From Deltaproteobacteria bacterium (GTDB lineage: Bacteria; Desulfobacterota; Syntrophobacteria; Syntrophobacterales; Thermodesulforhabdaceae), in contig JAFDGW010000002.1 in assembly GCA_019309115.1 (NCBI GenBank), forward strand, positions 1 to 64,000: a stretch of 64,000 nucleotides of DNA, in the 5' to 3' direction. The notes beneath the pieces are model-generated. The model did not search any database. It saw nothing but the letters and a program-made list of their open reading frames with translations, and was not told where the DNA came from. The position numbers were made by a program, and so were the translations under genes. Positions 1-48,430 of the stretch are shown here, in pieces; the stretch's first letter is position 1, and each line of letters begins with the position of its first letter.

Positions 1-73
1 GGTGTCCAAGTATTATCTGCTGTTCTTCTGTCAAGTTGTTTAATTCTAGGACTATTGCTCTTTTTGTTTTCAT
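1..73 (-). CDS. tnpB: TnpB RNA-guided nuclease, N-terminal fragment (partial at window edge)
   Basis: The ATG is at 73-71 on the minus strand and the first 24 codons read like the full-length copy at 46905-48314 (starting MKTKRAIVLELNNLTEEQ). Only the start is visible, so intactness cannot be judged. Differences from the other copy in this stretch are few. Confidence 0.75.
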   Translation of the reverse strand, partial: MKTKRAIVLELNNLTEEQQIILGH

Positions 74-187
74 CTCTGCAGTTGTAGTTTACATTCACGG
101 TTGTTTAGTTTCAATGTGCTAACGCACCTGCGGGCTTTCATCCCCTCCCTTACGGAAGGGGTCTTCCCGCCCGCAAAAGATAAAAAG
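1..187 (-). mobile_element. Left end of a second TnpB-only IS200/IS605-type element (cut by window edge)
   Basis: These bases repeat 48242-48428 with about nine differences, roughly 95 percent identity by eye. The stretch holds the first codons of tnpB and the untranslated left end with its hairpins (GTGC/GCAC around 115-128, CCCTT/AAGGG around 147-160, GCGGGC/GCCCGC around 130-175). Both copies share the bases ATAAAAAG at the outer border, which may be target sequence or the element's tip. The rest of the element lies outside the window. Confidence 0.85.
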
Positions 188-45641: not shown

Positions 45642-46893
45642 TCTTTTTGTGTTCTTCCTGCTTAATGTTCCAATTGCACTGTCTATAGCTTTGGCATCTC
45701 TCCTCGCCTTTCACGCTCACGGGGACCTTCCCTTAATGATGGTTATACAGCGTCTCTATGCTGGCGTTGACTCCTTTCCTCTCATGGCCGTTCCCTTGTT
45801 CATGTACGCAGGGCTCCTGATGGAAGCAGGGGGCATATCAAGAAGGGTTGTGGATCTGGCGGAAGCAACAGTGGGTTGGCTACCTGGCGGGCTTACGGCC
45901 GTTACAATTGTGTCGGCAATGTTTTTTGCCGGAATATCGGGATCTGCCGCTGCGGACGCCGCTGCTGTTGGCAGCATCCTAATACCTGCAATGATTCAGC
46001 GTGGCTATGATCCAAAACTAGCCAGTGCCGTAATGGCGTCAGGGGGCTCTCTGGGCGTCGTAATTCCACCGAGCATTCCAATGATAATCTTCGGATTCCT
46101 CACCGGAGCATCCATCGGAAAACTCTTTGCGGCTGGTATACTTCCGGGAATCGTCATAGGCATCAGTCTCATCGCTCTGTCGGTTTTCATAGCATGGCGC
46201 GGAGGCATGAAAGACATCACATCTTTCTCGGTGTCCAAATTCGTACGGGCCCTATGGGAAGCCAAATGGGCGCTTGGAGCACCGGTGGTAATTCTAGGAG
46301 GAATTCTCGGAGGAATTTTCACGGCAACAGAAGCAGCAGCTGTAGCAACCGCTTATGCTTTGATTGTTGGTTTGTTCATACATAGAGAATTAAAAATCGA
46401 GCAATTACCTGGAATCTTCATTAAAGCAACCCTCACTGCCAGCACCATTCTTTTCATAATATCGACGGCATCTGTTTTTAGCTGGTTGATGGCTATAGAG
46501 GACATACCCGGAAAGATTGCTGTCCACATCCTAGGCATCACCAGGAATCCAATCGTTCTCATTCTCATCGTGAATGCCATACTCTTGCTTGCCGGGACAT
46601 TCGTTGAAACAACGGCTGCCCTTATCCTTTTCGTGCCCGTCATCATGCCTCTTGTGCCAGATCTTGGGGTTGACATGATCCAGCTTGGGGTCATAGTCGT
46701 GGTAAACCTTGCAATCGGAATGCTAACACCTCCACTGGGAATATGCCTGCTGGTTTCATGCAGTATAGCTGGTATACGCCTGGAAGAAATAATCCGGCGA
46801 ATATGGGCATTTCTCATGGTCTTAATCCTGAATTTGTTACTTATAACCTTTTGGAAACCTTTGACAATGTGGATACCCGGATTTATGAAGTGA
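45619..46893 (+). CDS. dctM: TRAP transporter large permease (DctM family)
   Basis: Large membrane subunit with about 12 helices and the motifs FPLMAVPLFMYAG, ISGSAAADAAAVGSILIPAM and GVVIPPSIPMII, and in the second half PLGICLLVSCSIAG. The 424 residues are normal for the family. The stop TGA (46891-46893) is the reverse complement of the last TCA of the insertion sequence right end, so the present C-terminus (WIPGFMK) is set by the insertion. The element does not appear to have removed a domain. Confidence 0.92.
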   Translation: MMLVLLISLFVFFLLNVPIALSIALASLLAFHAHGDLPLMMVIQRLYAGVDSFPLMAVPLFMYAGLLMEAGGISRRVVDLAEATVGWLPGGLTAVTIVSAMFFAGISGSAAADAAAVGSILIPAMIQRGYDPKLASAVMASGGSLGVVIPPSIPMIIFGFLTGASIGKLFAAGILPGIVIGISLIALSVFIAWRGGMKDITSFSVSKFVRALWEAKWALGAPVVILGGILGGIFTATEAAAVATAYALIVGLFIHRELKIEQLPGIFIKATLTASTILFIISTASVFSWLMAIEDIPGKIAVHILGITRNPIVLILIVNAILLLAGTFVETTAALILFVPVIMPLVPDLGVDMIQLGVIVVVNLAIGMLTPPLGICLLVSCSIAGIRLEEIIRRIWAFLMVLILNLLLITFWKPLTMWIPGFMK

Positions 46894-47050
46894 ACTACTC
46901 CGCCCTAACGGACGGAGCTTCTAAGGGAGTTTGATAGGTCACTCCTACCCTTATCCCCTCCGGGCGGGTTCACACCACCCCCTACTCCTATCCCCGCAAA
47001 AAGCAGGGACTCGGAGATACCTTTACCCAGCTTGTAGATTCTTATCCTGA
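46891..47050 (-). ncRNA. Predicted omega RNA (guide RNA) region of the TnpB element
   Basis: In TnpB systems the guide RNA scaffold overlaps the 3' end of tnpB and runs to the right end, with the flanking host sequence as guide. Here the last 50 codons of tnpB are Gly/Ser-rich with no family likeness and lie over GC-rich inverted segments (for example CCGCCCGGAGGGG and the RE hairpin). The guide would start CTTCATAAATCC, antisense to the end of dctM. This is by analogy only. Confidence 0.5.
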
Positions 47051-48314
47051 CCACTTTTTTGAGTCCCGTTACAAGGTCAAACCACTTCCTCTTGAATTTC
47101 CTTAAGATATTCCCTGCTCCATTAACGTCTGCATTGATGTATCCCTTAATCGGTGAGTAGAACAACCCTCTCTTTTTCCTCCTTCCGTTACCTTTGCTCG
47201 CCTTTGTTACTCCTGCTCCTTCATCGCACGAGTCGGTAACGGAAGTGTAGCTCTCATCTATTAGCTTAACTTCTATCCCTACTTCTTTGAGTTTGTAGGT
47301 CAGGTATTCTGTTACTTTTCCGTGTGGCAGCAGTTTGAACATCTGATTTACAAGGTCCGGTAGGCTGGTCTCTCTGTTTTTTGACTCTTGAACTTTTCCT
47401 ATTGCTACCGTTCTTACTCCGTTCCTAAGTGCAAGCTTTCTTATCAGGTTGCTCACCTTGTGAGCATAGTCTCTCAATAGGTTCTTGATGCTTTTCCAAA
47501 GTTTGTGGAGTCTCTTTTCCACTTGAATAGTCGGCAGTCCTTTATTTTTGAGGTTGTCAAGCCTTCTTTGCAGGTTAGCTATCTTTTTGAGCTTCTTCCT
47601 GAGTAGTGTCTTTAGCCCCCTTCCATCTATGATGTAGGAGACTGGATTTCCCTCTACTACACAAGTTGCAAAGTTTGTGATTCCGTAGTCTATCGCCAAT
47701 ATTTTGTTCCCTATGGGTTTAACTTCAGGAACTTCCTTTTCATACACTACTACCATTTTAAAGCTTATATGCCCATAGGATTTATACGGAACTATCTGAA
47801 TGTTGAGAGGTTTAAGCTTTTTCAGGTCTTTGTATCCTGTTTCTATCCACAGGTACTCAGGTGAAAATCCAAACTTTTTGAGCAGGTACCCCTTTAAGCT
47901 CTTTGAAATGGATAGCCTTATCCTGCTTCCTTCTATTTTGAACCCCGTTTTATCCCAAGTTACTACTCTGTGGGGTGTTTTGGGATTTACGTAACCCGGT
48001 GGTCTAACAGTCTCTATCCCTTTCTTCTTGAACCTTTCAGGATTTTCTAGGAATTTAAAAAAGTTACTCCACCCTCTTGACAGTTCGTCAAGGACTATTT
48101 GAGCTGAACGCGACTGTAAGGAACGAAGATGAAGAGATGTATCTTTGAGTTTGTTATACAGGTCTCTATAGTCAGGTTTTGCTAATCTGTTCTTTACGAG
48201 GTAGTTTGCTTGATTCCAGAGCTTTCCAGCGTGGTAGGTGAGGTGTCCAAGTATTATCCGCTGTTCTTCTGTCAAGTTGTTTAATTCCAAGACTATTGCT
48301 CTTTTTGTTTTCAT
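46905..48314 (-). CDS. tnpB: TnpB RNA-guided nuclease with relocated RuvC-II glutamate
   Basis: 469 residues, full length. RuvC-I ILAIDYGITNFAT with Asp209; where canonical TnpB has the RuvC-II Glu (VVxEDL) this reads VAIGKVQE with Gly306; a Glu354 in KLIDESYTSVTDSC is at the place described as the alternative catalytic Glu in Fanzor and some TnpB proteins; RuvC-III Asp396 in INADVNGAGNI. The usual CxxC...CxxC zinc knuckle is reduced to one Cys (DSCDEG). N-terminal MKTKRAIVLELNNLTEEQ and the helical WED/REC part look intact. It could cut DNA using an RNA guide and protect the IS from loss. Confidence 0.9.
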   Translation of the reverse strand: MKTKRAIVLELNNLTEEQRIILGHLTYHAGKLWNQANYLVKNRLAKPDYRDLYNKLKDTSLHLRSLQSRSAQIVLDELSRGWSNFFKFLENPERFKKKGIETVRPPGYVNPKTPHRVVTWDKTGFKIEGSRIRLSISKSLKGYLLKKFGFSPEYLWIETGYKDLKKLKPLNIQIVPYKSYGHISFKMVVVYEKEVPEVKPIGNKILAIDYGITNFATCVVEGNPVSYIIDGRGLKTLLRKKLKKIANLQRRLDNLKNKGLPTIQVEKRLHKLWKSIKNLLRDYAHKVSNLIRKLALRNGVRTVAIGKVQESKNRETSLPDLVNQMFKLLPHGKVTEYLTYKLKEVGIEVKLIDESYTSVTDSCDEGAGVTKASKGNGRRKKRGLFYSPIKGYINADVNGAGNILRKFKRKWFDLVTGLKKVVRIRIYKLGKGISESLLFAGIGVGGGVNPPGGDKGRSDLSNSLRSSVR

Positions 48315-48354
48315 CTCTGCGGTTGTAATTTACATTCACGGTTGTTTAGTTTCA

Positions 48355-48415
48355 AGGTGCTAACGCACCTGCGGGCTTTCATCCCATCTCTTACGAAAGG
48401 GGTCTTCCCGCCCGC
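48355..48415 (-). repeat. Left-end hairpins of the TnpB element
   Basis: AGGTGC (48355-48360) and GCACCT (48365-48370) form a perfect 6-bp stem with loop TAAC; GCGGGC (48371-48376) pairs with GCCCGC (48410-48415) around a second small stem. In the left copy the first stem has a mismatch while the inner CCCTT/AAGGG stem is perfect; in this copy the reverse holds. Such single-strand hairpins are the TnpA recognition form in this family. Confidence 0.7.
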
Positions 48416-48430
48416 AAAAGATAAAAAGCA

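What the first reader, a model, noticed from the sequence alone, without database searches (positions are those of the whole stretch)
46905..48314. TnpB with relocated catalytic glutamate and reduced zinc knuckle
Seen: RuvC Asp209 (AIDYG) and Asp396 (NADVNGA) are kept, but the RuvC-II position reads AIGKVQE (Gly306), and a Glu354 lies in IDESYTS. Known: Fanzor proteins and part of the TnpB tree have a rearranged RuvC-II glutamate of this kind. The CxxC pairs of the zinc knuckle are nearly gone. Inference: an active, guide-RNA-dependent nuclease from the Fanzor-like branch, in a likely anaerobic and possibly thermophilic host, compact (469 residues) and therefore of interest.
Basis: partly seen in the sequence, partly recalled or inferred. 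Interest (0 to 1): 0.72.

Follow-up and report, generated by a model that had tools for sequence, protein, structure and literature searches.

The report
Zinc-free TnpB with shifted catalytic glutamate
This is a multicopy jumping gene from a probably heat-loving bacterium that encodes an RNA-guided DNA cutter (TnpB) and its guide RNA; the unusual position of its catalytic glutamate is real, but it marks a large, already described branch of TnpB proteins, not a new kind of enzyme.

Summary
ORF 46905-48314 (minus) is a TnpB-family protein keeping D209 and D396, with G306 at the canonical RuvC-II position and E354 after the next strand. Across 174 dereplicated TnpBs the two glutamate positions are mutually exclusive (106 alternative, 67 canonical, 0 both, 1 neither). 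Among 81 aligned relatives, D209, E354 and D396 are the only invariant acids. The ORF lies in a 1,531-bp IS200/IS605-type element (46890-48420; target motif TTTAT; right end TTCAC) with about 24 left and 20 right ends in the genome, each in a different context. Its last ~130 nt fold into a covarying omegaRNA scaffold with an ISDra2-like pseudoknot, so the flank (46870-46889) is the natural guide. Relatives in hydrothermal MAGs carry a Y1 tnpA upstream; this genome has only a tnpA remnant. Selection on tnpB is purifying (dN/dS ~0.08-0.14). The protein sits on the 'Ealt' side of the TnpB tree but is D-Phi-G, IS200/IS605-linked and zinc-free. It is therefore not in the DPG, IS607-linked clade that gave rise to Fanzors, and it is not unusually compact. 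It is a new subfamily of a described kind; nuclease activity is likely but untested.

The parts
46890..48420 (-). Whole insertion element, 1531 bp, tnpB only (no tnpA)
   Evidence: Left boundary from 24 genome copies with constant TTTATC... and different 5' flanks; right boundary ...TAGTTCAC from about 20 copies with different 3' flanks; coordinates checked.
48421..48425 (-). Target/transposon-adjacent motif (TAM) TTTAT
   Evidence: TTTAT precedes the left end in 22 of 24 genome copies and in relatives L110, L111/L124 and L301.
48356..48415 (-). Left-end subterminal palindromes (GCGGGC...GCCCGC 48415-48371; GGTGCGTTAGCACC 48369-48356)
   Evidence: Read from sequence; conserved in the left-end copies.
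46905..48314 (-). tnpB ORF, 469 aa (functional fold about residues 1-430)
   Evidence: Pfam OrfB_IS605 and Cas12f1-like_TNB; NCBIfam NF040570 RNA-guided TnpB over cut-off; AlphaFold2 model pLDDT 84.9, pTM 0.81, disordered from 430; Foldseek hits to Cas12f, ISDra2 and ISFba1 TnpB and mimivirus Fanzor2.
47688..47690 (-). Codon of RuvC-I Asp209 (D-Y-G)
   Evidence: Invariant in 81 of 81 relatives.
47397..47399 (-). Codon of Gly306 at the canonical RuvC-II Glu position
   Evidence: Gly in 81 of 81 Ealt relatives; aligned to canonical Glu by hhalign; end of strand 300-306 in the model.
47253..47255 (-). Codon of Glu354, the alternative catalytic glutamate (Ealt)
   Evidence: Glu in 81 of 81 relatives; mutually exclusive with canonical Glu over 174 TnpBs; two residues after strand 348-352.
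47127..47129 (-). Codon of RuvC-III Asp396
   Evidence: Invariant in 81 of 81; start of helix 395-407.
46890..47020 (-). omegaRNA scaffold, overlapping the 3' end of tnpB
   Evidence: Conserved structure with 18 of 37 pairs compensated; z-score -4.05; covariance-model match 144.8 bits; weak Rfam matches to sot0042 and HgcC at the same place and strand.
46968..46973 (-). GTGAAC loop sequence, proposed pseudoknot partner of the 3'-terminal GTTCAC (46890-46895)
   Evidence: 92.4% of cells paired against 20-56% in slid versions that keep at least 4 pairs; one double change, L028.
46898..46917 (-). Right-end hairpin CTCCGTCCGTTAGGGCGGAG, followed by TAGTTCAC
   Evidence: stem replaced wholesale (CCTACGAC/GTCGTAGG, CCCTTGAC/GTCAAGGG) in relatives with pairing kept.
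46870..46889 (-). Natural guide TTCATAAATCCGGGTATCCA (flank just outside the right end)
   Evidence: Position next to the conserved right end; different in each genome copy. Guide length assumed from ISDra2 (16 nt resolved, PMC10097598).
1..187 (-). Left end and first 24 codons of a second copy, cut by the contig end

Best explanation
A non-autonomous (tnpB-only) member of the IS200/IS605 family. Its TnpB is an RNA-guided DNA endonuclease of the D-Phi-G/Ealt branch. The nuclease site is D209-E354-D396, with Glu supplied from just after RuvC strand beta5 instead of the end of beta4, where Gly306 now sits. TnpB binds the ~130-nt omegaRNA encoded by its own 3' end (46890-47020) plus ~16-20 nt of flanking DNA as guide. 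It would cut sites reading TTTAT followed by the guide, that is, the element's own empty donor site, so that repair from a sister copy restores the element. Insertion itself (single-strand transfer 3' of TTTAT) is done by a Y1 TnpA acting in trans. Shown here: element ends, TAM, omegaRNA structure, residue conservation, purifying selection, relatives with tnpA. Inferred: catalysis by E354, guide length, cleavage and homing.
For: Families. Glutamate swap. Single Ealt side in the tree. Fold. Ends and copies. omegaRNA. Y1 tnpA in relatives. Purifying selection, dN/dS 0.08-0.14 against relatives and 0.20 against another copy in the genome. Literature: Ealt/Ecan and D-Phi-G/DPG clades (PMC10711439); SpuFz1 D383/E541/D606 coordinating two Mg2+ (PMC11423790); ISDra2 pseudoknot between GUUCA and GAA, and TNB inserted between beta5 and alpha4 (PMC10097598).
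Against: No transcript, cleavage or metal-site data. No intact Y1 tnpA in the 96%-complete assembly, only an 88-residue remnant, so current mobility is doubtful. Several copies in the genome are decayed. No empty orthologous site was found for this copy. This copy has a one-base insertion in the scaffold compared with 23 aligned ones.
Confidence: 0.82

Rival explanations
1. A catalytically dead TnpB: loss of the canonical glutamate inactivated the nuclease, and the protein now only binds DNA, as TldR repressors do.
For: Canonical Glu is replaced by Gly; nuclease-dead TnpB relatives exist (TldR; PMC13418256); one relative, L368, has lost both glutamates.
Against: D209, E354 and D396 are the only invariant acids in 81 relatives; zero of 174 have both glutamates and one has neither, as expected of a swap and not of decay; dN/dS ~0.1 over the fold. 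The equivalent Glu coordinates metal in SpuFz1 (PMC11423790).
Confidence: 0.08
2. A bacterial Fanzor progenitor (pro-Fanzor) or Fanzor sensu stricto.
For: Shares the Ealt position with Fanzors; Foldseek finds mimivirus Fanzor2 9b0l at TM 0.57.
Against: DYG instead of DPG; IS200/IS605 Y1 tnpA and right-end hairpin instead of IS607; no zinc finger. Cas12f and TnpB structures match better than Fanzor2.
Confidence: 0.04
3. An inert relic: an immobile multicopy element whose TnpB survives only by recent copying.
For: No intact cognate tnpA in the assembly; decayed and truncated copies; a frameshifted tail in the window copy.
Against: The window ORF is intact over the whole fold; dN/dS 0.20 against another copy of the same genome; the scaffold fold is intact.
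Confidence: 0.12

Closest known systems
D-Phi-G/Ealt TnpB clade (Yoon et al. 2023, PMC10711439); NCBIfam NF040570
   Same: RuvC triad with Glu moved to the position just before the zinc-finger region; D-Phi-G at RuvC-I; RNA-guided TnpB family hit over cut-off.
   Different: Forms its own starred group of 10 on a long branch (1.11), 24-31% identical to the other Ealt relatives in the alignment; known so far from hydrothermal/thermophile genomes; no zinc finger at all.
ISDra2 TnpB (IS200/IS605)
   Same: Same domain order, omegaRNA from the right end, GUUCA-GAA pseudoknot, target motif at the left end.
   Different: ISDra2 uses the canonical Glu278 and has a CCCC zinc finger; here Gly306, Glu354 and no zinc finger. 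TAM TTTAT here; ISDra2 TTGAT from general knowledge.
Fanzor / pro-Fanzor
   Same: Alternative glutamate position.
   Different: Fanzors are DPG and IS607-linked or eukaryotic; this is DYG and IS200/IS605-linked.
sotRNA / HgcC (Rfam RF02656, RF00062)
   Same: Best, though sub-threshold, Rfam matches to the 3' end of tnpB, right strand. sotRNAs are tnpB 3'-overlapping transcripts in haloarchaea (general knowledge).
   Different: Scores 29.3 and 26.9 bits against cut-offs of 88 and 50, so not members.

Membership tests
TnpB (RNA-guided, OrfB_IS605) | Family profile and fold | tested here: met
   PF01385 65.2 bits (cut-off 30.5), PF07282 40.3 (26.3), NF040570 145.8 (100); Foldseek to ISDra2 and ISFba1 TnpB.
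TnpB (RNA-guided, OrfB_IS605) | D-E-D RuvC triad | tested here: met
   D209, E354 (alternative position), D396 invariant in 81 relatives.
TnpB (RNA-guided, OrfB_IS605) | omegaRNA overlapping the right end, guide from the flank | tested here: met
   Structure and covariation, pseudoknot, covariance-model hits at tnpB 3' ends of divergent TnpBs such as L310, L302, L324, L112 and L115. Transcript not tested.
TnpB (RNA-guided, OrfB_IS605) | Guide-dependent DNA cleavage | not testable with these tools
   Needs biochemistry.
IS200/IS605 element | Insertion 3' of a short fixed motif, no terminal inverted repeats, subterminal hairpins, fixed right end | tested here: met
   TTTAT in 22 of 24 left ends, TTCAC at right ends, hairpins near both ends.
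IS200/IS605 element | Y1 HUH transposase TnpA | tested here: inconclusive
   Present and overlapping tnpB in relatives L123, L125, L127; also just upstream in L128. Absent from this element; only an 88-residue remnant in the genome.
Ealt D-Phi-G clade | Glu at the alternative position, non-Glu at the canonical one, hydrophobic residue after the RuvC-I Asp | tested here: met
   G306, E354, DYG.
Fanzor / pro-Fanzor | DPG at RuvC-I | tested here: not met
   DYG.
Fanzor / pro-Fanzor | IS607 linkage (pro-Fanzor) | tested here: not met
   Y1 tnpA and IS200/IS605-type right end.
Fanzor / pro-Fanzor | Ealt six residues before a CxxC zinc finger | tested here: not met
   Ealt present but no CxxC pair.
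TldR (nuclease-dead) | Loss of RuvC catalytic residues | tested here: not met
   All three acids present at conserved positions.

The most novel reading that the evidence does not exclude
A deep-branching, zinc-free, thermophile-borne TnpB subfamily with a Fanzor-type active site and an IS200/IS605 lifestyle. It would be an active, heat-stable prokaryotic enzyme in which the effect of moving the catalytic glutamate (for example on collateral single-strand cutting) can be separated from the DPG motif, the zinc finger and the eukaryotic context.
Probability: 0.5. Interest if true: 0.45.

Novelty: new member of a known kind. Interest (0 to 1): 0.3.

Why it matters
The Ealt arrangement is proposed (PMC10711439) to lower collateral ssDNA cutting in Fanzors. 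A prokaryotic Ealt TnpB without a zinc finger and without DPG, with its TAM, scaffold and natural guide all mapped, makes that idea directly testable. The subfamily also illustrates transfer of RNA-guided transposons between phyla in hydrothermal habitats: 77-85% protein identity between Desulfobacterota, Aquificota and a viral contig, and no hit in the 59 most closely related genomes searched. The finding itself is otherwise ordinary: Ealt TnpBs were more than half of the TnpBs collected here, though the sample was seeded with them.

Tried and rejected
AlphaFold2 on the 10-sequence alignment gave a poor RuvC (pLDDT 58.4); it was replaced by the 81-sequence model. Plain column counting at the canonical Glu failed for canonical TnpBs because MAFFT shifted that motif; this was corrected by reading the local motif. 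An orthologous empty site in four family genomes was sought and not found because synteny is broken. A cognate full-length Y1 tnpA in the genome was sought and only a remnant found. The other Y1-like hit, on C67, sits inside a DNA methylase ORF and was not taken as the mobiliser. E310 and D353 were considered as alternative catalytic acids and rejected for lack of conservation. No Rfam family reached its cut-off at the element.

Full report
OBSERVATION. The minus-strand ORF 46905-48314 encodes 469 aa and is a TnpB-family protein by Pfam and NCBIfam, over the curated cut-offs. There is no CxxC pair between E354 and D396. C363 is the only cysteine there, and its column is mostly Leu in relatives.

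IS THE RELOCATION REAL? TnpBs were collected from related genomes, genome contigs and viral contigs. ORFs were aligned and dereplicated at 90% identity to 174 sequences. 106 have Glu at the E354 column and no canonical RuvC-II Glu; 67 have the canonical Glu and not E354; none has both; one (L368, Lys at the E354 column) has neither (for five canonical proteins the motif had to be read by eye from the output, and single apparent exceptions of the pattern search, L206 and L152, were read the same way). CxxC pairs are absent in 104 of 106 of the alternative group and present in nearly all of the other. The sample was seeded with zinc-free alternative-Glu proteins, so proportions are not population frequencies, but mutual exclusion does not depend on that. 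In an 81-member alignment of the alternative group (A5) the only invariant acids are D209, E354 and D396, and G306 is invariant. Profile-profile alignment with canonical TnpBs puts G306 on the canonical Glu and E354 on the Pro before the YTS motif.

STRUCTURE. AlphaFold2 with the 81-sequence alignment gave pLDDT 84.9 and pTM 0.81, with disorder from residue 430. D209 lies in strand 204-210, G306 ends strand 300-306, E354 follows strand 348-352, and D396 starts helix 395-407. In ISDra2 TnpB the zinc-finger (TNB) domain is inserted between beta5 and alpha4, and the triad is D191, E278, D361 (PMC10097598). The topology therefore places E354 at the exit of beta5, the site described for alternative-Glu TnpBs and Fanzors (PMC10711439). 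The Fanzor SpuFz1 triad D383, E541, D606 coordinates two Mg2+ (PMC11423790). Foldseek's best PDB hits are Cas12f, ISDra2 and ISFba1 TnpB; mimivirus Fanzor2 comes lower (TM 0.57). Coordinates could not be read, so distances are not measured.

THE ELEMENT. Searching the genome with the ends of the element gave 24 clear left ends and about 20 right ends, most at contig ends, as expected of a collapsed repeat. Left ends begin TTTATC followed by TTTTGCGGG, with different sequence before them (TTTAT exact in 22 of 24). Good right ends finish ...TAGTTCAC (TTTAC in L028), with different sequence after them. In the window the element is 46890-48420, TAM 48421-48425, guide 46889 down to about 46870. The insertion sits at the stop codon of the neighbouring dctM gene; the element's end supplies the TGA. 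A second copy's left end fills window 1-187.

GUIDE RNA. The last ~130 nt of 24 copies and relatives (A7) fold into four main stems plus a basal hairpin. 97.2% of cells pair, 18 of 37 pairs show double changes, and no shuffle of 500 reaches the observed values; slid controls fall to 40-49% paired. The window sequence folds with z = -4.05. The GUGAAC loop at -84 to -79 can pair with the 3'-terminal GUUCAC (92.4% of cells, one double change), the same kind of pseudoknot as in ISDra2 (-5U to -3C with -103A to -105G). A covariance model from these sequences finds 25 places in the genome and, independently, the 3' ends of divergent TnpBs such as L310, L302, L324, L112 and the canonical L115. Rfam's best sub-threshold matches at the spot are sot0042 and HgcC. 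The window copy has one extra G in the scaffold, which also changes the reading frame of the disordered protein tail compared with relatives.

RELATIVES AND HISTORY. Close relatives (77-85% identity) occur in Desulfobacterales, Desulfurobacteriaceae and Ca. Desulfofervidaceae MAGs and on a viral contig; a sister group (52-55%) occurs in Persephonella/Hydrogenothermaceae. No hit was found in the 59 other genomes of the relatives search, so the element most likely arrived by horizontal transfer. dN/dS is 0.08-0.14 against close relatives. Relatives L123, L125 and L127 have a Y1 tnpA overlapping the start of tnpB, and L128 has one just upstream. L122 seems to show tnpA deleted, from sequence inspection. 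The window genome has only an 88-residue tnpA remnant, 59% identical. In the tree all alternative-Glu proteins, plus L368, are on one side of a branch; the window protein is in a starred group of 10 on a long branch. L114's own placement is unsure because of its long branch.

COMPARISON. Yoon et al. split Ealt proteins into a D-Phi-G clade and a DPG clade, the latter holding Fanzors and cyanobacterial IS607 pro-Fanzors. The window protein is DYG, IS200/IS605-linked and zinc-free, so it belongs to the first.

MECHANISM. Shown: ends, TAM, scaffold, catalytic-residue conservation, selection. Inferred: TnpB processes the 3' end of its transcript, uses the flank as guide, cuts TTTAT-guide sites left empty when the element leaves, and so promotes its own retention, as established for other TnpBs. 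Transposition would depend on a TnpA in trans that is not intact in this assembly.

Noticed in passing
G000:C67:94500-98400 (L088): A RAYT/Y1-like domain (PGATYFITFRTYNHRV...MPDHVHIVAKPL...YVHHNPVKAGLV) is read in frame inside a >1000-aa DNA methylase ORF; an odd fusion or in-frame insertion.
   Followed up: no
L368:2968-4248: A TnpB nested among alternative-Glu proteins has Gly at the canonical site and Lys at the alternative site: candidate naturally nuclease-dead TnpB.
   Followed up: partly
window 46880-46900: The element's right end supplies the stop codon (TGA) of dctM; joining the flanks would give ATG AAA TAA, the same protein end, so the insertion looks harmless.
   Followed up: partly
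G000:C5:22937, C9:66252: A second, related family of right ends (..TGGGTCTTCTGGATGGGGAGA..CTACCAGAAGC..TTCAC) suggests another TnpB element family in the genome.
   Followed up: no
G000:C36:65666-65888 and C66:23342-23712: Short (220-370 bp) left-end/right-end derivatives lacking most of tnpB: possible non-autonomous mini-elements carrying an omegaRNA.
   Followed up: partly
L114 (3038 onward): A TnpB with E-x6-CxxC (Fanzor-type Ealt with a CxxC) lies next to a serine recombinase ORF in a same-phylum genome: possible IS607-type Ealt TnpB outside cyanobacteria.
   Followed up: no
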